From positions 1-34,788 of the forward strand of contig HF989164.1 of NCBI GenBank assembly GCA_000431275.1: a stretch of 34,788 bases of DNA. Direction: 5' to 3'. The DNA is from Prevotella sp. CAG:755 (GTDB lineage Bacteria > Bacteroidota > Bacteroidia > Bacteroidales > Bacteroidaceae). The position numbers and the translations under genes are program-made. Positions within the stretch are counted from its first letter, which is position 1; each line of letters starts with the position of its first letter. Below are positions 27 through 8,166 of this stretch, piece by piece. Under the pieces are notes generated by a model. That model searched no databases. It was not told the DNA's origin and saw nothing but the letters and a program-made list of their open reading frames with translations.

Positions 27-90
27 TTGGCCAAAAGGGTCAATCATATTGTAGCCAAAGGGGACAGTCCTGCTTGGCCAAAAGGGTCAA
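27..90. repeat. Iterated direct repeats at island edge, possible IS end
   Basis: The 17-mer TTGGCCAAAAGGGTCAA occurs at 27-43 and again, identical, at 74-90. A degenerate copy (GCCAAAGGGGACA) lies between them near 53-65, so the three copies are about 23-24 bp apart. Several spaced direct repeats at one end are typical of IS21-family termini, and this position at the edge of a degraded island fits that. No istA or istB coding sequence is visible, so the assignment to an insertion sequence is an inference. Confidence 0.45.
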
Positions 91-134: not shown

Positions 135-281
135 ATGGCATCGGTAAAAGTGAAATTCCGTCCTTCCGCCACAGACGGCAGGGAGGGCTGCATACACTAT
201 CAGGTGATACACAACCGCACGGTCCACCTAATTATGGATAAAACATATGATATTAAAGAAAGAAAAACTCATGTGGGATAA
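135..281 (+). pseudogene. N-terminal remnant of a Bacteroidetes tyrosine integrase
   Basis: An ATG at 135 opens a 48-codon frame beginning MASVKVKFRPSATDGREG and continuing through HYQVIHNRTV. This is the characteristic start of the arm-type DNA-binding domain of Bacteroidetes site-specific integrases. After about residue 30 the expected sequence is lost and the frame ends at 279-281. A full protein would be around 400 residues, so the core-binding and catalytic domains are gone and the fragment cannot recombine DNA. It points the same way as the operon that follows and marks an old recombination junction at about position 225. It is a different integrase from the truncated one at 6898-7689. 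Confidence 0.7.
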
Positions 282-448: not shown

Positions 449-1636
449 ATGATGAAACTAATAGAAAGAATTTGTGATTTTTTCAGTCAGCTTTTGCATT
501 CCATTCGTGCTTCCAAGAAGTGTCAGCCAACAGTAAATCCACCTGACAATGGTAATGGCGCACACGTTGGGGATGGCGGAAATAGTACTTTTTCAAATGC
601 AAATGGGCATCCGTCTGGAAACGATGGATCTACTGATCAGCATACACAAGGAATCACGCCCAACCCCATCGAAGACGGCCAGTCCGACAAAAATCCACAG
701 TCAACGATTCCAAAAACTTATACTGTACAAACTATTCCATTTTTAACTTCAAAATTAAATTTGGATTACGAGGCTACCTACAAAGTCCCGTATTCTATTC
801 TTGATTCAGTTGATACCCAATTCCCCATTATCCGTGCCCCAAAGAGTGGATGCGAAATAAAGTTACCTGTGGTTGGTCGTAGTGGCAAAAGAGGAGTTTG
901 TGAAGAACACCTATGTAAGATGATAAGAGATTTGAAGCTGCATGATTTTTACGATGACATTTCATTGTTTATAGGGAATTATTCTAAACCATACGAACCT
1001 GATATAGCTTATATAGATGTTCAAAAAGGAATATTCATCGACATAGAAATAGACGAACCTTATTCCGGTTCGGAACGACTACCTATACACTATAAAACGA
1101 AAGGTGGGACAAAAGATGACAGACGTAACGACTGTTTTACAGAACGTGGTTGGACCGTATTACGTTTTTCTGAGAAACAAGTGCATGAACAACCGAAATC
1201 TTGTTTAAAACGAGTTTATCAACTATTGAGTGAAATGGATGGGTCAATAACGATGCCTCAGTGTATTGCAACAGAGGCGGACATTTTTTCTAATGATATG
1301 TGGACTAAAGAACAAGCAGAAAGAATGGAGCAGAATAAGGAACGTGAAAAAATGCTTGGTATAGACAAGTTCATTCAAACAGTAGAAGGGGCTCATACTC
1401 CTTTAAAGGATTATTCTAAAGGAAAAGAATTAGAAGATAATATTGCCCGACGCAAAAAAGGAATAAGGTCAATAACTGATATAAATTCAACCTATGCTCC
1501 ACCGCAATTGACAAATGTTCACATTTCTAATTCAGACGAGCAAAGGCGTAGGGAAGCCGAGCGATATGAGCATCCACAACAGATAAGCACCCAAACAAAG
1601 CCCAAATCAACACCATCAAGCAGAGGATATGCCTAA
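449..1636 (+). CDS. PD-(D/E)xK-type (DUF559/Vsr-like) nuclease, first gene of candidate defence operon
   Basis: A 395-residue protein counted from the ATG at 449; an upstream in-frame TTG at 416 is less likely. Residues 1-25 are a short hydrophobic/basic helix. Residues about 25-95 are Gly/Asn/Ser-rich and look disordered. Residues about 140-262 resemble the DUF559/Vsr-like nuclease fold: a helix with E152-E153, then PDIAYID (D185), then IDIEIDEPY (E200, D202), then a helix with DDRRND leading into RGWTVLRFSEKQV. These residues fit a metal-binding E...D...ExD site. The last 120 residues are charged and Ser/Pro/Gln-rich and end in SSRGYA, a loose tail. The stop overlaps the next start by 8 bp, so translation is coupled. 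Base composition is much richer in A+T than the chromosome downstream. The family name is from motif reading; the substrate is unknown. Confidence 0.7.
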   Translation: MMKLIERICDFFSQLLHSIRASKKCQPTVNPPDNGNGAHVGDGGNSTFSNANGHPSGNDGSTDQHTQGITPNPIEDGQSDKNPQSTIPKTYTVQTIPFLTSKLNLDYEATYKVPYSILDSVDTQFPIIRAPKSGCEIKLPVVGRSGKRGVCEEHLCKMIRDLKLHDFYDDISLFIGNYSKPYEPDIAYIDVQKGIFIDIEIDEPYSGSERLPIHYKTKGGTKDDRRNDCFTERGWTVLRFSEKQVHEQPKSCLKRVYQLLSEMDGSITMPQCIATEADIFSNDMWTKEQAERMEQNKEREKMLGIDKFIQTVEGAHTPLKDYSKGKELEDNIARRKKGIRSITDINSTYAPPQLTNVHISNSDEQRRREAERYEHPQQISTQTKPKSTPSSRGYA

Positions 1637-4037
1637 ATCAATATGCAATTTCACATATGAGGACAAGGATTTCTACAACAACTATTGTTCAAACCTTGAC
1701 GATTTCACTTTGTTGGAATACTTCGAGGACAAAGACAATGAAAACGAATTTGTAGGAAAGATTGCCCCTAACAATACCAACTATAATATTGAAATAGAGG
1801 TACGCATTCCATATACTTTTCCACACAATAAGTTGTTGTTCGTAACATGGAGTCTCTCAGGTTATCCCCATCTCATTCCTTTTGACAGGAATGATTCCTT
1901 AAAAGGTAATTGGTTCTGCCTAAATTCGGCTTTTGCAGAAACGCCTAAAGCTCAACTTGATGAAGAATTTTCCAGACTTAGGGGGTGGCTTCATAAAAAT
2001 TTGAAGGAAGGTTTGCCGCGTCATATAAACGACCGAAACACTCAAGCTGCACTGCAAATTTTTAATGCCTACGAGGGATACAATCCTGATGAAATCAATG
2101 AGTTGGCAGAAAAAAGCCAACTTACGTTTGTGGGTGATTTTGCTAAGCATAGCGAGAATTTCAAGGAAACATCAGGCTATTTAAATGTTGTGAGATATCC
2201 AAACGACAAATTCACTGTTTTCCAAGATAAGGAAGGAACGAATGAAAAATTACCATACATACTTGTAACACATATACCTGAACATAGTGACTGTTTTGCC
2301 TCATGGGCAGATGAGTTTAAGTGGGATGAGAAACTTTGCAAGACTTTGCTTCCCGACTTTCGCTTTAGAGAAGTAAGTGAAGTAGCGTTAAGACCATTGC
2401 AAAAAGAGGGAGAAAATAAAAAAAGTTTTTTTATTCGCCAATTCTGTGGGGTTTCTGATGAAGAAGCTGAAGCAGACCAACGATTCCTTACTGCGAAGCT
2501 ATCTACAATGACTATGCCTAGAATGCATAAAGAAGCCTTACAAAAAGAGATAGATAGCATAGTGGAATCAAATAGAAGAATGCGTGAAGCTGCCAATAGG
2601 CCAATTGGAGATGTCGATGAAATAGAAGAGCCAGACCCACAAGAACTTTATAATAACCCTGTTTCTAAACTGCACTATTTTACAATCGGCATTGTCTGTG
2701 ATGGTGGCATAAAATGGCTTCTTGCTACTGCAAATCTTTATAATCGGAAATGCTCAGAGTTTCACTATAACATTGAAAGATACAGATGCGATCTAAAAGA
2801 GGTAATCGATATCAAGCTGTGGTTTTCGTATTCTAATACAATAGGACGAAAAGAGTATTTTGGTCGAGGCGAATTAAACAGTTCGTTAGCTGACAAGAGA
2901 ATTGCGATTATAGGGCTTGGTGCGATTGGTTCGCCTATGGCAGAAGCTTTGGCCAGAGGGGGAGTTCGGCAACTGACACTTTGGGATGGAGATATTGTAG
3001 AGGCAGGTAACATCTGCCGTTCCATATATGACAATGCAGACATCGGCAACGCCAAAGCACAGGCACTCGCTGCACATATCAAACGTATTTCTCCATTCTG
3101 CGATGTCAGACCCAAAGGTTGCTGGTATCAACCAGATTATACATGTGTTTGCCGTTATCTTTGGGGAGATTTTTATGGAAACATCAATTATGATTCTCAG
3201 AAAAAATTTCTTGAGGCGTTGCATGAGTATGACTTAATCATAGATTGCACGGCCAGTAATGAGCTTTTGCATTTCCTGAGTTATGCCGCAAATGATGTTT
3301 CACTAATGAGTTTGTGCATCACAAACAGGGCGACACATCTACTTTGCTTTTCTAATCATGACGGAAATCCATTCGAGTTAAGAAAGCATTTCCTTGCTTC
3401 CATAGAGCAGGATACGGAAAACTTCTATGTGGAGGGCACTGGTTGTTATTCTCCGACCTTTTTAGCAACAAGTTGCGACGTACAATCACTTGTCAACCTA
3501 TGCACACGTTCTATTCATAGGCAAATGCGGGAGAGGGGTTATGTGCTTTCAGCAATATGGCATTACAATGATGACAATATCATTGCGGACTCTCTGCATT
3601 GCTACCAACTTGAAGGAAGTCCAATAACAATGGTCGTATCAGAAAGTACTATTAACAAAATGAGACAACTTCCTATGGCACATAACGGTAATATGGGTTA
3701 TCTTCTTGGTGGCTATAATACGGATAGAAATGCTATCTTCATTACATCGGTTATAAGTCAAGATAGTTCAAACGAAGTAATGGAGAAAACGCGTCAGCTT
3801 TCCAACGGAATAATTGACTATGTTGGCAATGTTTGCGCAGCCTCGTATAACGACAATCAGCCATTGGAATCTTCAAAAATGCAAATTGTTGAAATTGCAA
3901 ATAATACGGACGTAGACACGAACAATCCAATTGTAGCTACAGTAAGGAGCGATGGGCAAATAGAATTTCGATTGTACATAAATGAAAAATTTTTATCGTT
4001 TAATCCGATGAATAATGGAACTAATGGAAAAAGATAA
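1629..4037 (+). CDS. E2-like / E1 (ThiF) fusion with degenerate JAB/MPN-like C-terminus
   Basis: An 802-residue protein. Residues about 10-125 look like a ubiquitin-conjugating (E2) fold of the bacterial type: a beta-rich start, FP at 64-65, YPH at 79-81, and a candidate catalytic Cys97 in NWFCL, where E2s carry the active cysteine. Residues about 130-410 form an uncharacterised middle region. Residues about 415-640 are an E1/ThiF adenylation domain: GLGAIG at 429-434, acidic D453/D455, N461 and R464, K476 and D539. C606, in GTGCYSPT, is a candidate E1 thioester cysteine. Residues about 663-735 resemble a JAB/MPN fold (SPITMVVS..., MGYLLGG, IFITSVIS) but lack the glutamate and the HxH...D metal site, so it is probably not a peptidase. 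Cap2 of type II CBASS has the same E2-then-E1 order. It overlaps both neighbours, so one operon is likely. Confidence 0.8.
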   Translation: MPKSICNFTYEDKDFYNNYCSNLDDFTLLEYFEDKDNENEFVGKIAPNNTNYNIEIEVRIPYTFPHNKLLFVTWSLSGYPHLIPFDRNDSLKGNWFCLNSAFAETPKAQLDEEFSRLRGWLHKNLKEGLPRHINDRNTQAALQIFNAYEGYNPDEINELAEKSQLTFVGDFAKHSENFKETSGYLNVVRYPNDKFTVFQDKEGTNEKLPYILVTHIPEHSDCFASWADEFKWDEKLCKTLLPDFRFREVSEVALRPLQKEGENKKSFFIRQFCGVSDEEAEADQRFLTAKLSTMTMPRMHKEALQKEIDSIVESNRRMREAANRPIGDVDEIEEPDPQELYNNPVSKLHYFTIGIVCDGGIKWLLATANLYNRKCSEFHYNIERYRCDLKEVIDIKLWFSYSNTIGRKEYFGRGELNSSLADKRIAIIGLGAIGSPMAEALARGGVRQLTLWDGDIVEAGNICRSIYDNADIGNAKAQALAAHIKRISPFCDVRPKGCWYQPDYTCVCRYLWGDFYGNINYDSQKKFLEALHEYDLIIDCTASNELLHFLSYAANDVSLMSLCITNRATHLLCFSNHDGNPFELRKHFLASIEQDTENFYVEGTGCYSPTFLATSCDVQSLVNLCTRSIHRQMRERGYVLSAIWHYNDDNIIADSLHCYQLEGSPITMVVSESTINKMRQLPMAHNGNMGYLLGGYNTDRNAIFITSVISQDSSNEVMEKTRQLSNGIIDYVGNVCAASYNDNQPLESSKMQIVEIANNTDVDTNNPIVATVRSDGQIEFRLYINEKFLSFNPMNNGTNGKR

Positions 4038-6720
4038 TATACTCGCCACCGTAAAAGCCATCAATGAAGCCTGTGACGCTCTTTCTGAACTGTCAAATGA
4101 CGAATTAAGAAATAGGTTTCAAGACATTCGCAACAGCGTAGCAGAACAAGGCGTTACCCTTGACAGCGTTTTGGTAGATGTGTTTGCCATAGTTAAAGAA
4201 ACTATGAAACGATTTGCCAAAAACAGATATTTAAGTGTTGAAGCTTCTCCTACTGAAAAGTCATGTGAAAACAGACAAGATTTCGTAAATATCTGTAATA
4301 ATGGCAAAGCTATATATGGGAATCATTGGAGTGTACTTGGTGAAAAATTCACTTGGAACATGATACCTTACGATGAGCAGTTGCAAGGAGGAATTGAAAT
4401 CCACAATGGTCGAATAATACAGATGGCGACTGGAGAAGGCAAGACTTTGGTTGTTATAGCACCAGCGGTGCTAAACGCAATAAGCGGCAAGGGAGTGCAT
4501 ATAATGACAGTCAACGAATATCTTTCTAAAAGGGATTTTGAGATTACTCGACCTATATATTCTTTTCTCGGACTTTCAGTCGGATGCATCGAGGACAAGG
4601 CGCATTGTAGTTTGCAACGTAAGGAAGCCTATGCTTGCGACATTACTTTCGGAACAACATCAGGCTTCGTTTTCGACTATCTTTATGACCACACAACCTT
4701 AGATGTTTCAAAGTGTGTACAAGATAAATTCGGCTTTGCCATTGTAGATGAAGCTGATTCAGTGATGATTGACGGGGCTGAAACACCACACATTTTGTCA
4801 GGAAATATATATTTCACTCTGAAAAATGGGAAAAGCCTATATGAAAAATTCCTGCCAAATGTAAAAAAGTTAGTGGAGCAAGCAGGTATGGGATTATACT
4901 CAATTGACAAGCTTCGGAAGAAGGCTACATTGACAGAAAAAGGAAAGTCTTGGCTCGCTAATGATTGTGGAGACCCGACAATTTTTGATGATGAGTTTTA
5001 CGACAATGAGATAAAACGTATAGAAAAAGATGCCGCGCTCACAAAAGCTCAAAGAGAAGGCTTTGTTTTAGCAGAAAAGAACTCACGGCTGGAACAACTT
5101 AAACTTCAAAACGTGTTATGCCAATTATTGACTGCCCTTATTGTGTATGAAAGGGATGTGGACTACATTGTGTCAGACAAGAGGATTATTATAGTTGACC
5201 AAAATACAGGTCGTCTAAAACCCACCCATGTATGGGAGTTTGGCTTGCATGAAGCAGTCATGGCAAAAGAGTACATCTCGCCTAACGCAAGTATAGACAA
5301 TATCAGCGGTACTATTACTGTAAAAAATTATCTGCAGCTCTACGAAAAACTTTCGGGAATGACAGGTACTGCCATTGCTGCAATAGACGAATGGCGTGAT
5401 GTGTATGGCCTTGAAGTAGCTGTTATTCCTACTCATAAACCTGCAATCCGTAAAGACTACCCACTTCGAGCATTTGCCACAAGTGACCAAGCTCTTTTTG
5501 CCATGTCGCAAGAAGTGGCAAAATTGCATGAAGAACAACGACCTGTTCTTGTTGGCATAAACTCCATTAGACAATCTGAAAAGATACAGTCCTATTTTGA
5601 AAGCAAAGGATTGAAGCCGCAATTGTTGAATGCAAAAACACTCGGACAGGAAGCCTCTATCATAGCCCATGCGGGGGAACTTGGATGCATTACCGTGGCA
5701 ACAAATGTGGTTGGACGTGGAACAGACATCAAGCCAAGCGATGAATCACTGAATGCAGGCGGTTTAGCTGTCATCGGATGGGGTATAGCGCATTCAAGAC
5801 GTATTGACGAGCAACTCATTGGACGTTCAGGACGACAAGGAAATCCTGGCTCATCACAATTTTATGTGTCGTGCGAAGATGAAATAATAGGGTTCTTATC
5901 TCCATATGATAAAAAATCATTGGAAGATTTGAAACAACATAATGCTTCAGAACGTGGGGAATTTACAGATGAGCGTGTTGTAAATTTATTCTTGTTAGCC
6001 CAACACAACAAGGAGGAAGAGGACAAAAAAGAACGTGCAGAGGCAACTAAGCGAGATGATATCATTAACCCTTTCCGTAGGCTTTTGTATGATTTACGTA
6101 TGCAGCTTCTTCGGCAAGACAATCAAGCCATTGAATCTGGTTATAAACTTTTCGACTTGTGGGAAAATGTTGATTTTAAGTCTGAATATGAAAGTCATAG
6201 AAAGAAGATAGTCGAAAAGGCTCTCCCTATAGTTAAAAGAGCATTGAACAATATATGGAGTGTTGAAGCTTTTGTCCCAATACCCTTGATGACAGATGGA
6301 AAGACATTTTCCATAACGTGCGACTTCAGAAAAGCCATAGCAACAAATGGTACATCCATCATAAACGAAATTGAAAGACAATCTTTGCTTACGGCAATAG
6401 ACAAGTTGTGGATTGGCTTCATTAACGAAATTAACAGTCCTCTGCTACCCCAAAATGAATATGAATTGATTTATCAGAAAGTGTTTGCTTCTGCAAAGGA
6501 AGACTTGAGGCACACTTTACTTACTGTTACATTACCCATCAACGATGAAGATGAAGATAATCTTACCACCTTAATGAGTCGTAGCCATTTCCATTTTCCA
6601 GACACGGCCTGTGACACGGTCGGTTTTGAAGAACTTTGTCCTTGTGGAAGCGGCAAGCCATATTGGCAATGCCATGGACGTTTTGTAGTGAAAGAATCTA
6701 ACATCTTTAGCCTATCGTAA
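4015..6720 (+). CDS. SecA-like DEAD motor ATPase with SEC-C zinc motif, encoded in the island
   Basis: A 901-residue SecA homologue (a start at 4024 is also possible). It has nearly all SecA motor motifs: an LSNDELRNRF N-terminus, Walker A MATGEGKTL (137-145), VNEYLSKRD (166-174), Walker B VDEADSVMID (244-253), LSGMTGTA (446-453), ATNVVGRGTDIK (562-573), and IDEQLIGRSGRQGNPGS (597-613). The C-terminus carries CPCGSGKPYWQCHGR (875-889), the zinc-binding SEC-C motif. The region after Walker B, where SecA has its preprotein-binding domain, is divergent: the SecA sequence around TNNEFGFDYLRDN reads TTSGFVFDYLYDH here (214-226), and the middle and C-terminal scaffold (about 670-860) is not recognisable. 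It is unlikely to be the housekeeping translocase, given its place in an AT-rich island, its overlap with the E1/E2 gene and its divergence. A specialised translocase or unfoldase is likely; its substrate is unknown. Confidence 0.85.
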   Translation: MELMEKDNILATVKAINEACDALSELSNDELRNRFQDIRNSVAEQGVTLDSVLVDVFAIVKETMKRFAKNRYLSVEASPTEKSCENRQDFVNICNNGKAIYGNHWSVLGEKFTWNMIPYDEQLQGGIEIHNGRIIQMATGEGKTLVVIAPAVLNAISGKGVHIMTVNEYLSKRDFEITRPIYSFLGLSVGCIEDKAHCSLQRKEAYACDITFGTTSGFVFDYLYDHTTLDVSKCVQDKFGFAIVDEADSVMIDGAETPHILSGNIYFTLKNGKSLYEKFLPNVKKLVEQAGMGLYSIDKLRKKATLTEKGKSWLANDCGDPTIFDDEFYDNEIKRIEKDAALTKAQREGFVLAEKNSRLEQLKLQNVLCQLLTALIVYERDVDYIVSDKRIIIVDQNTGRLKPTHVWEFGLHEAVMAKEYISPNASIDNISGTITVKNYLQLYEKLSGMTGTAIAAIDEWRDVYGLEVAVIPTHKPAIRKDYPLRAFATSDQALFAMSQEVAKLHEEQRPVLVGINSIRQSEKIQSYFESKGLKPQLLNAKTLGQEASIIAHAGELGCITVATNVVGRGTDIKPSDESLNAGGLAVIGWGIAHSRRIDEQLIGRSGRQGNPGSSQFYVSCEDEIIGFLSPYDKKSLEDLKQHNASERGEFTDERVVNLFLLAQHNKEEEDKKERAEATKRDDIINPFRRLLYDLRMQLLRQDNQAIESGYKLFDLWENVDFKSEYESHRKKIVEKALPIVKRALNNIWSVEAFVPIPLMTDGKTFSITCDFRKAIATNGTSIINEIERQSLLTAIDKLWIGFINEINSPLLPQNEYELIYQKVFASAKEDLRHTLLTVTLPINDEDEDNLTTLMSRSHFHFPDTACDTVGFEELCPCGSGKPYWQCHGRFVVKESNIFSLS

Positions 6721-6897: not shown

Positions 6898-7689
6898 TTA
6901 CATTTTGTCTAGTGCAACACCGGTGAAACAGGAAAATACAAAGACGTCGCGCACCCGTTGCAGGCGTTCCACTTCAATCTCCTTGTCCATAATGCTCTGG
7001 AGTTCGTCCATCGTCAGAAAGCCTTTGTCCACCTGAACGAAGGTGATGGGCTGCGTGAATGGGTTGAACTGGATAAGACCGGCGTTCCTTGCGCGGGTAA
7101 CGGCTTTCTTGAACAGTTGCATCATCTTCGAGGTGGCGTTGTGGCCGACCTTCTTGTCCACACGCAGGAAGTTGCGGAAGCCGTTGATAAATTCCTCGTT
7201 GATTTCCGTCAATGGAATGTCTTTATACTTTTCTTTCCTGAACCTGAACTGAATGTATTCTTCCATACGGCGGTATGTCAGGTCGTATTTCTTGTAGGTG
7301 TTCTGTGAGAGCGACGTGCCCACTTCCTTCCGCTTTTCCTCGTTCATTTTCTTGAACACGGTCAGCAACGTGTTGGCTTTCGTTTCAATGCCCAGATAGA
7401 TGTTCTTCAGCTTCAGCGGTGAAGGGTAGCGGTTGTTTTCGATTTCCTTTTCGTAGATGCGGGTAATGTCGGTCTTGATTTTCTCTATCTGCGTGCGCAA
7501 ATACACCGCCGTCGCACTACGACCGACTACGCCACCGTCCTTCCACATCTTCTTATCCACCATTAACTGTGAGTTGAACTGTACCTGTTCGCTGTCAATG
7601 GTGATGCGAACCATGATAGGATATTGCTTGTCCTTTCCTTGTTCCCTTTTCCTTGCGTAACAAAGTACGCTGAATGTGTTCCGTTTCAT
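6898..7689 (-). pseudogene. Truncated tyrosine integrase, catalytic domain missing
   Basis: A 263-codon frame from ATG (7689) to a stop at 6898. The start, FSVLCYARK...YPIMVRITIDSEQVQF, is the arm-type DNA-binding domain. Residues about 110-210 (VFKKMNEEKRKEVG..., MEEYIQFRF, GFRNFLRVDKKVG) are the SAM-like core-binding domain. The catalytic domain has only begun (RVRDVFVFSCFTGVAL) when the frame ends in DKM and a stop. A complete member of this family is around 400 residues; the lysine, HxxR and tyrosine of the active site are all missing. It sits about 400 bp from the 3' end of tRNA-Asp, the usual place for the integrase of a tRNA-integrated element. It may still bind att DNA, but it cannot cut. 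Confidence 0.8.
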
Positions 7690-8056: not shown

Positions 8057-8092
8057 GTCTTCGACTTTCTTATTTCAGTCTTTTTTCGTAAG

Positions 8093-8166
8093 CGGTGCGT
8101 ACGGGACTCGAACCCGTGACCCCATGCGTGACAGGCATGTATTCTAACCAGCTGAACTAACGCACC
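8093..8166 (-). tRNA. tRNA-Asp (GTC)
   Basis: On the minus strand the acceptor arms GGTGCGT (8160-8166) and ACGCACC (8094-8100) pair, followed by the discriminator G (8093). The anticodon stem CATGC/GCATG encloses the loop CTGTCAC with anticodon GTC. The T arm carries the usual GGTTCGAGTCC. CCA is not encoded. It has its own promoter (8214-8245) and terminator (8019-8056). Its 3' end faces the island, so the 3' part is the probable integration site of the element to the left. Confidence 0.95.

What the first reader, a model, noticed from the sequence alone, without database searches (positions are those of the whole stretch)
449..6720. Undescribed three-gene system: nuclease, E2-E1 fusion and SecA-like motor
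Three overlapping genes (8 bp and 23 bp overlaps) sit in an AT-rich island by tRNA-Asp between two broken integrases. They encode a PD-(D/E)xK-type nuclease, a fused ubiquitin-like conjugation enzyme and a SecA-family ATPase. Seen: the motifs and overlaps. Known: bacterial E2-E1 proteins occur in anti-phage systems such as type II CBASS (Cap2) and the Bil operons. Inferred: this is a defence system in which conjugation marks or activates the nuclease or a phage target and the motor moves or unfolds it. I know of no named system that pairs a SecA homologue with E1/E2 and a nuclease.
Basis: partly seen in the sequence, partly recalled or inferred. Interest (0 to 1): 0.93.

Follow-up and report, generated by a model that had tools for sequence, protein, structure and literature searches.

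The report
Nuclease that doubles as ubiquitin-like tag
A rare gut-bacterial gene trio seems to work like a stripped-down ubiquitin system: a DNA-cutting enzyme carries the attachment tail itself (in relatives the tail is a free 45-residue peptide), a fused ubiquitin-type enzyme would attach it to targets, and a motor descended from the protein-export ATPase SecA assists, probably as a defence against viruses.

Summary
The trio is real and where stated: DUF559-like nuclease, E2-E1 fusion and SecA-like ATPase, overlapping by 8 and 23 bp. In six of the seven Bacteroidales loci returned by the genome scan, a free ~45-residue peptide with the same kind of tail (TPSPRGHA) precedes the E2-E1 instead; 170 such database peptides reached E<=1. 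The E2-E1's closest solved relative is CBASS Cap2, which conjugates proteins through a C-terminal Gly/Ala. I infer that the nuclease (or peptide) is the modifier. The E2-E1's C-terminal domain looks like a catalytically dead JAB protease; the two relatives read with an intact JAB have modifiers with residues beyond the tail. The SecA-like protein, found in the window and those seven loci but not in two more distant ones, keeps the ATPase motifs and lacks the two-helix-finger tip, so is probably no exporter. Defence is inferred; nothing was tested experimentally. I file it as a new, Cap2-related conjugation system whose cyclase is replaced by a nuclease or an unfolded micro-tag.

The parts
449..1636 (+). 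Nuclease with conjugation tail (395 aa): N-terminal amphipathic helix, disordered linker, PD-(D/E)xK-like core, disordered linker, tail
   Evidence: Pfam DUF559 E=6e-5; D198, E200, D202, E203 invariant in 28 aligned sequences; AF2 model: core about residues 91-340 with blocks of pLDDT 77-99, 20-85 and 341-361 below 50
455..511 (+). N-terminal helix (residues 3-21), amphipathic here, strongly hydrophobic in many relatives
   Evidence: Hydrophobic moment 0.71 here; best 19-residue hydropathy above 1.6 in 28 of the 75 closest homologues
1583..1633 (+). Tail ISTQTKPKSTPSSRGYA (residues 379-395), proposed site of conjugation through the C-terminal alanine
   Evidence: 62 of the 66 closest nuclease homologues end R[GSA]YA; in these 62 the last 8 residues are 95% identical pairwise versus 16% for residues -60 to -30; 11 of 17 identical to the tag peptide of L002
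1629..4037 (+). E2-E1 fusion (802 aa), Cap2-like
   Evidence: nearest solved structures Cap2 7tsx, 7tsq, 7to3 by sequence and fold
1917..1919 (+). E2 cysteine C97 (WFCLN motif)
   Evidence: invariant in 30 aligned sequences; catalytic role by analogy
3444..3446 (+). E1 cysteine C606 (GTGCYSPTF)
   Evidence: invariant in 30 aligned sequences; in the alignment with Cap2 7tsq the place is an Ala, as I recall a deliberate cysteine change in that crystal construct
3627..4007 (+). Degenerate JAB/MPN domain (residues about 667-793)
   Evidence: aligned over the intact JAB of L010/L039 (HSHP...SSSD), metal ligands and catalytic Glu lost; L039 has a Prok-JAB Pfam match, the window protein has none; 0 of 120 listed homologues have H[ST]H in the last 160 residues, two of them truncated
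4015..6720 (+). SecA-like ATPase (901 aa)
   Evidence: Walker A GEGKT at residue 140, DEAD at 245, GRSGRQG at 603; clade with seven other system SecA-likes, apart from the housekeeping SecAs included
6424..6474 (+). Place in the SecA-like protein where the two-helix-finger tip (YEQKDP...) is deleted
   Evidence: absent in 8 of 8 SecA-likes, present in 7 of 7 housekeeping SecAs that cover the region
135..281 (+). Integrase-like fragment, left border
   Evidence: MASVKVKFRPS..., resembles by eye the start of an ORF of L001
6898..7689 (-). Integrase fragment without catalytic domain, right border
   Evidence: Arm-DNA-bind_5 and Phage_int_SAM matches only
8092..8166 (-). tRNA-Asp, possible attachment site of the island
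   Evidence: the attachment role is inferred

Best explanation
A Cap2-type protein-conjugation system, most likely antiphage, whose modifier is a nuclease. The E1 domain adenylates the C-terminal alanine of the nuclease tail (TPSSRGYA), passes it through C606 to C97 of the E2 domain, and the E2 attaches the nuclease by an isopeptide bond to lysines of nearby proteins, probably at the inner membrane because the nuclease carries an amphipathic or transmembrane N-terminus. Covalent anchoring, or release from E2-E1, concentrates or activates the nuclease on invading DNA or starts abortive killing. In sister systems the same kind of tail sits on a free ~45-residue peptide, and a PLD-type protein is encoded beside the SecA-like ATPase; there the tag marks the target and the PLD-motor pair probably acts on it. 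The SecA-like ATPase is probably a cytosolic motor, no longer an exporter, that engages the conjugate and extracts or threads it. The JAB-derived domain seems to have lost protease activity, so modifiers are encoded ready-made and conjugation is probably not reversed by this protein. SHOWN (sequence or computation): gene content, tail conservation, free tag family, Cap2-like fold, invariant cysteines, loss of the JAB motif, motor motifs, missing finger tip. INFERRED: adenylation and transfer of the tail, targets, membrane site, nuclease activity, the motor's role, defence.
Against: No experiment. The window's E2-E1 gives no Pfam JAB match; the dead-JAB reading rests on alignment to relatives. 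The nuclease model has no significant PDB fold match (best E=0.33), and its activity is unproven. Nothing directly links the SecA-like protein to the tail; it is absent from L039's 9.8 kb contig and from L008's 4.3 kb contig. Eight of 12 neighbour proteins tested had no PADLOC match, and no enrichment was measured. Prevalence is low: 1-3 genomes of 9-395 per search, seed genomes included. Ten relatives (among P0188-P0198) have a different tail, PYA, nine of them with 1-2 extra residues; P0191 ends exactly at PYA and its JAB is unknown.
Confidence: 0.62

Rival explanations
1. The SecA-like protein works on nucleic acid, not polypeptide: with the nuclease it forms a restriction-like motor-nuclease complex, and conjugation only tethers or regulates the nuclease.
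For: In L039 a relative of the E2-E1 stands beside a tailed PLD protein and a UvrD-like helicase, with no SecA-like ORF seen on the 9.8 kb contig, so a helicase may fill the motor slot. The window SecA-like has weak matches to DEAD, Helicase_C, Cas3g and DinG and a phage DNA-helicase family (E=1e-6). PLD and SecA-like ORFs overlap in 6 of 6 loci L002-L007 by ORF bounds.
Against: The SecA preprotein cross-linking domain is still recognisable (E=3e-18), though shortened. The UvrD case is one locus.
Confidence: 0.25
2. The free tag is a precursor of a modified peptide (as MccB, an E1-like enzyme, adenylates a peptide C-terminus; recalled) and the system makes a peptide toxin or signal.
For: Short peptide with conserved C-terminus next to an E1-like enzyme; MccB is among the structural matches.
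Against: An E2 domain with invariant cysteine is fused to the E1; the same kind of tail is fused to a 395-aa nuclease in the window clade; nearest relatives are Cap2.
Confidence: 0.08
3. The SecA-like protein is an accessory exporter (SecA2-type) and the neighbours are incidental.
For: The two PDB sequence matches with the lowest E-values are chains called SecA 2. SecA2 sequences were not in my tree.
Against: Two-helix-finger tip deleted in 8 of 8; domains outside the motor core poorly conserved; the genes overlap in the window and the SecA-like stays with E2-E1 across two gene arrangements.
Confidence: 0.05
4. It maintains its mobile element or answers stress and is not an antiphage system.
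For: Integrase fragments flank it here; two integrase genes lie near it in L001 and a relaxase gene in L003. Related Bub operons have not been shown to defend against phage (PMC13373217, passage).
Against: Closest biochemical relative, Cap2, serves defence; nuclease partner; defence-candidate neighbours in L007.
Confidence: 0.2

Closest known systems
Type II CBASS Cap2 (E2-E1) with its CD-NTase
   Same: E2-E1 fusion with nearest sequence and fold; modifier without ubiquitin fold, ending in a conserved Gly/Ala; a JAB protease is beside the E2-E1 in the CBASS locus L040 and fused to it in L039 and L008
   Different: No CD-NTase; the modifier is a nuclease or a ~45-residue free peptide; JAB-like domain fused and apparently dead; SecA-like ATPase added
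Bil and Bub operons
   Same: Bacterial E1, E2 and JAB enzymes (BilABCD: PMC11354881 passage; Bub enzymes recalled)
   Different: BilA has ubiquitin-like domains (same passage); no such domain found here
6A-MBL systems
   Same: Cap2-like protein (NCBIfam 6A-MBL cap2_3 matches at 104.6 bits)
   Different: Far below its cut-off of 320; no metallo-beta-lactamase domain in the trio
Pup (recalled)
   Same: Short disordered modifier ending in a fixed motif, with an ATPase that could engage it
   Different: Pup uses the PafA ligase and a C-terminal Glu/Gln; here E1/E2 chemistry and a C-terminal Ala are expected
SecA / SecA2
   Same: ATPase core, shortened preprotein cross-linking domain, SEC-C zinc motif
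   Different: Finger tip that enters SecY (recalled role) is deleted; clade apart from the housekeeping SecAs compared; encoded with conjugation genes

Membership tests
Type II CBASS | CD-NTase (cyclase) gene | tested here: not met
   No nucleotidyltransferase domain in the three proteins; the other ORFs of 100 aa or more between 1 and 8090 overlap these genes or the integrase fragment
Type II CBASS | Cap2-type E2-E1 fusion with both cysteines | tested here: met
Type II CBASS | Modifier with conserved C-terminal Gly or Ala | tested here: met
   nuclease and tag end in Ala; rule from PMC10097602 passages
Type II CBASS | Active Cap3 JAB protease | tested here: not met
   JAB motif absent from the fused domain; no other JAB domain in the trio. 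Some CBASS lack Cap3 (recalled)
Type II CBASS | Thioester and isopeptide formation through the tail | not testable with these tools
   needs protein biochemistry
Bil / Bub | Ubiquitin-like beta-grasp modifier | tested here: not met
   no such Pfam domain in the three proteins
6A-MBL | NCBIfam cap2_3 above cut-off and MBL partner | tested here: not met
   104.6 of 320 bits; no MBL domain in the trio
Pup system | PafA-type ligase and C-terminal Glu/Gln (recalled) | tested here: not met
   no such domain in the trio; C-terminal Ala
SecA preprotein translocase | Walker A, DE.D-type and arginine-finger motifs | tested here: met
SecA preprotein translocase | Two-helix finger tip that inserts into SecY | tested here: not met
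   absent in 8 of 8 SecA-likes, present in 7 of 7 housekeeping SecAs covering it; role of the tip recalled
PD-(D/E)xK nuclease superfamily | Core fold | tested here: inconclusive
   DUF559 match above cut-off; weak PDB sequence match to an endonuclease-like protein, E=0.17; no fold match at E<=0.001

The most novel reading that the evidence does not exclude
Probability: 0.35. Interest if true: 0.95.

Novelty: new variant of a known kind. Interest (0 to 1): 0.82.

Why it matters
It would show that ubiquitin-type E1/E2 chemistry needs neither a ubiquitin fold nor a cyclase: a short unfolded tail is enough, and effectors can carry it. That makes two open questions directly testable: what C-terminal conjugation is for in Cap2-type immunity (signal, anchor or degradation mark), and whether a SecA-family motor can act outside protein export. 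The free tag peptides are small enough to be overlooked: none of the 120 listed has a precomputed Pfam domain, and the few names given by sources are 'hypothetical protein' or plainly off.

Tried and rejected
E2-E1 in viral contigs: ten pattern matches, no relative; phage records: none; plasmids: 31 records with partial matches, 0 covering 80%, 26-33% of the query in the 20 listed; likewise 28 records, 0 covering 80%, for the L008 relative. Nuclease relatives in viral contigs: six, at E 3e-4 to 5e-31; in the two I read, L042 and L043, the matching ORF has no such tail and I recognised no E2-E1 beside it by eye. SecA-like as a plain exporter: thought unlikely because of the deleted finger. Tag as a misread part of E2-E1: rejected, it is a separate ORF ending 11-14 bp before the start codon. 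Repeats: no pair that clearly marks attachment sites. Fold search of the nuclease: nothing significant. E2-E1 C-terminal domain: no JAB row in the 50 rows shown by each fold list, which E1 matches filled, so it is untested by fold. Wider sampling for intact-JAB relatives gave no new locus of this kind, so the JAB/extension co-variation rests on 2 plus 8 loci. Papers: ten searches; in the listings (titles, abstract starts) I saw no SecA plus E1/E2 plus nuclease system and no tailed nuclease as modifier. Beyond listings I saw passages of PMC10097602, PMC1779556 (the words SecA and nuclease do not occur), PMC11354881, PMC13373217 and PMC11153139. Most subscription papers are not held, and two relevant ones (Gong 2025, Ye 2026) could not be read. 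PHROGs gave no named match but a weak DNA helicase; one unnamed phage family, phrog_32805, matches the SecA-like at E=1.5e-129, not followed.
Full report
OBSERVATION. Left of them are 48 codons that look like the start of an integrase (135-281), right of them an integrase without catalytic domain (6898-7689, minus) next to tRNA-Asp. Domain calls support nuclease (DUF559), E2-E1 fusion (ThiF; PADLOC E1-E2) and SecA-like ATPase.

CONSERVATION. The one genome scan with the E2-E1 alignment returned eight loci. L001 (Barnesiella sp. An22) repeats the trio in the same order. L002-L007 (Bacteroidales by record title) have E2-E1 at 37-38% identity, then, converging, a SecA-like gene (38-41%) and a further gene overlapping it. 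That gene is PLD-type by Pfam in L002 (PLDc_2 E=4e-28); in L003-L007 I recognised it by eye, and in L005 it is cut by the contig end. L008 (Clostridia, 4.3 kb) has E2-E1 and a PLD-type gene and no SecA-like gene on the short contig. Genome searches found the family rare: 2 of 393, 2 of 395, 1 of 9, 3 of 349, 1 of 341 and 2 of 326 genomes, these counts including seed genomes and, in some, CBASS relatives. In the protein database 506 E2-E1 homologues reached E<=1e-10 (120 listed).

THE TAIL. The nuclease homologues (260 at E<=0.001, 120 listed) fall into three sets by rank. Of the closest 66, 62 end R[GSA]YA, 58 exactly SRGYA; the other four (P0129, P0150, P0164, P0176) end otherwise, perhaps through contig ends or frame changes. 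Of the next 11, ten end [KRQ]PYA with 0-2 further residues. Of the last 43, none has either ending. In the 62, the last 8 residues are 95% identical pairwise, residues -20 to -8 39% and residues -60 to -30 16%. The structure model puts the nuclease core at about 91-340 with flexible stretches on both sides. Upstream of E2-E1 in L002-L007 lies a 44-50 codon ORF ending TPSPRGHA (five) or IPSPRGHA (L003), 11-14 bp before the E2-E1 start. A search with these six peptides found 170 database proteins at E<=1 among 235 candidates; the 120 listed all have E<=4e-14, 119 of them end PRG[HYD]A, and a second conserved block, PSYNGIG...VLRTT, lies at the N-terminus. The end of the window nuclease is identical to the L002 tag at 11 of 17 positions; 200,000 shuffles of the tag reached 8 at most (one pair, chosen by me). 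Exact contig-length coincidences: E2-E1 with nuclease 17 (shift control mean 0.66, maximum 4), E2-E1 with tag 6 (0.42, maximum 2), nuclease with tag 0 (hand-typed lists, most contigs under about 4 kb and a few others left out). So a locus seems to have either a tailed nuclease or a free tag.

THE ENZYME. By sequence profile and by fold of the model (mean pLDDT 83), the nearest solved structures are Cap2 of Enterobacter cloacae, including the form bound to the CD-NTase C-terminus. One paper reports that in Cap2 operons the CD-NTase ends in Gly or Ala, that this residue matters for a thioester with Cap2, and that lysines are the predominant targets; the E. cloacae one ends in Ala (PMC10097602, passages). 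Another reports a B. cereus cyclase ending in Ala that is conjugated to PspA (PMC11153139, passages). This is the ground for calling the nuclease or tag the modifier. In related loci short tails with similar endings appear on other proteins: the CD-NTase of L040 (SMODS by Pfam; a CBASS with NucC and JAB) ends PPSNQFG; the partial upstream ORF of L038, cyclase-like by eye, ends SAKRFG; the PLD protein of L039 ends VPPTSYGK; the nuclease homologue P0203 ends VPPTTFG. That these tails are homologous to TPSSRGYA is not shown.

THE DEAD JAB. The E2-E1 of L039 carries an intact JAB domain (Prok-JAB E=4e-11; HSHP...SSSD); aligned with it, the window protein lacks the metal ligands and the catalytic Glu. 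L008 also has an intact motif (EWHTHP...SGTD). Both modifiers of the intact type run past the tail (L008 PYA then YKY; L039 SYG then K), while the eight without the motif end exactly at Ala. This suggests that JAB trims precursors and that its loss went with ready-made tails. It rests on ten loci, and the cut point in L008 and L039 is my inference.

THE MOTOR. The eight SecA-likes (window, L001-L007) form one clade (support 1.0) apart from the housekeeping SecAs included; SecA2 sequences were not included. Six of the seven genomes G001-G007 yielded a separate SecA of about 1,100 aa, which I take as housekeeping; G005 did not. Walker A, DE.D-type and GRxGRQG motifs are kept. Conservation of residues invariant in six housekeeping SecAs is 0.63-0.78 over window residues 51-250, 0.21-0.24 over 251-350, 0.42-0.60 over 351-700, 0.09 over 701-750, 0.55 over 751-800, 0.10 over 801-850 and 0.61 over 851-900. 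The stretch YEQKDP... at the two-helix finger tip is missing in 8 of 8 and present in 7 of 7 housekeeping sequences covering it. From recalled SecA biology that tip enters the SecY channel, so export through SecY is unlikely. What the motor acts on is open; the UvrD-like helicase beside L039's genes, and weak helicase matches, are the best arguments for a nucleic-acid role.

PLACE IN THE CELL. The window nuclease starts with an amphipathic helix (hydrophobic moment 0.71), and 28 of the 75 closest homologues start with a strongly hydrophobic segment. I infer membrane association.

CONTEXT. Of 12 neighbour proteins that I picked and ran against PADLOC, four matched: PDC-S06 and PDC-S01 strongly, a few kb upstream of the system in L007, and mad8 weakly in L003 and L006. 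A restriction-endonuclease-like gene (REase-ARP) lies downstream in L006. Two integrase genes lie near L001's system and a relaxase gene near L003's. The system looks mobile and sometimes among defence genes; no enrichment was measured.

VERDICT. Gene content confirmed, interpretation refined: a Cap2-type conjugation system in which the CD-NTase is replaced by a tailed nuclease or a free micro-tag, with an apparently dead JAB and a SecA-derived motor. It fails defining features of CBASS, Bil/Bub, 6A-MBL and Pup, yet probably works like Cap2. No catalogued system with this content was met in Pfam, PADLOC or NCBIfam or in the listings of ten paper searches; unpublished or subscription papers could hold it.

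Noticed in passing
L039:419-5020 (G314): Adjacent same-strand genes: a UvrD-like (GajB-like) helicase, a PLD protein ending VPPTSYGK and an E2-E1-JAB fusion with intact JAB motif: perhaps a helicase version of the tailed-nuclease system.
   Followed up: partly
L008 about 320-480: Clostridial tag-like ORF whose PAPRPYA tail is followed by YKY, overlapping the start of an E2-E1 with intact JAB.
   Followed up: partly
P0188-P0198: Nuclease homologues with a different tail, PYA plus usually 1-2 residues; predicted to have partners with active JAB.
   Followed up: no
L002-L007 SecA-like C-termini: The SecA-likes of the tag-type loci end in or near runs of arginine (three or four) after the zinc motif; those of the window and L001 do not.
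   Followed up: no
A3 and P0242-P0361, tag N-terminus: Second conserved block PSYNGIG..VLRTT at the start of the free tag, not seen in the tailed nucleases; perhaps a docking site for the motor or the PLD protein.
   Followed up: no
L040:5601-9337 and L038: Two Bacteroidota operons of CBASS type (L040 by Pfam and PADLOC, L038 by eye) whose E2-E1 is related; the cyclase-position ORFs end SNQFG and KRFG.
   Followed up: partly
window 4015-6720: The unnamed phage protein family phrog_32805 matches the SecA-like protein at E=1.5e-129, so SecA homologues occur in some viral genomes.
   Followed up: no
window 27-43 and 74-90: Exact 17-bp direct repeat TTGGCCAAAAGGGTCAA left of the integrase fragment, with a similar stretch between by eye.
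   Followed up: no
L003:3589-6423 and L006:4900-7842: Large ATPases with weak mad8/HerA matches near the system, possibly conjugation genes of mobile elements.
   Followed up: no
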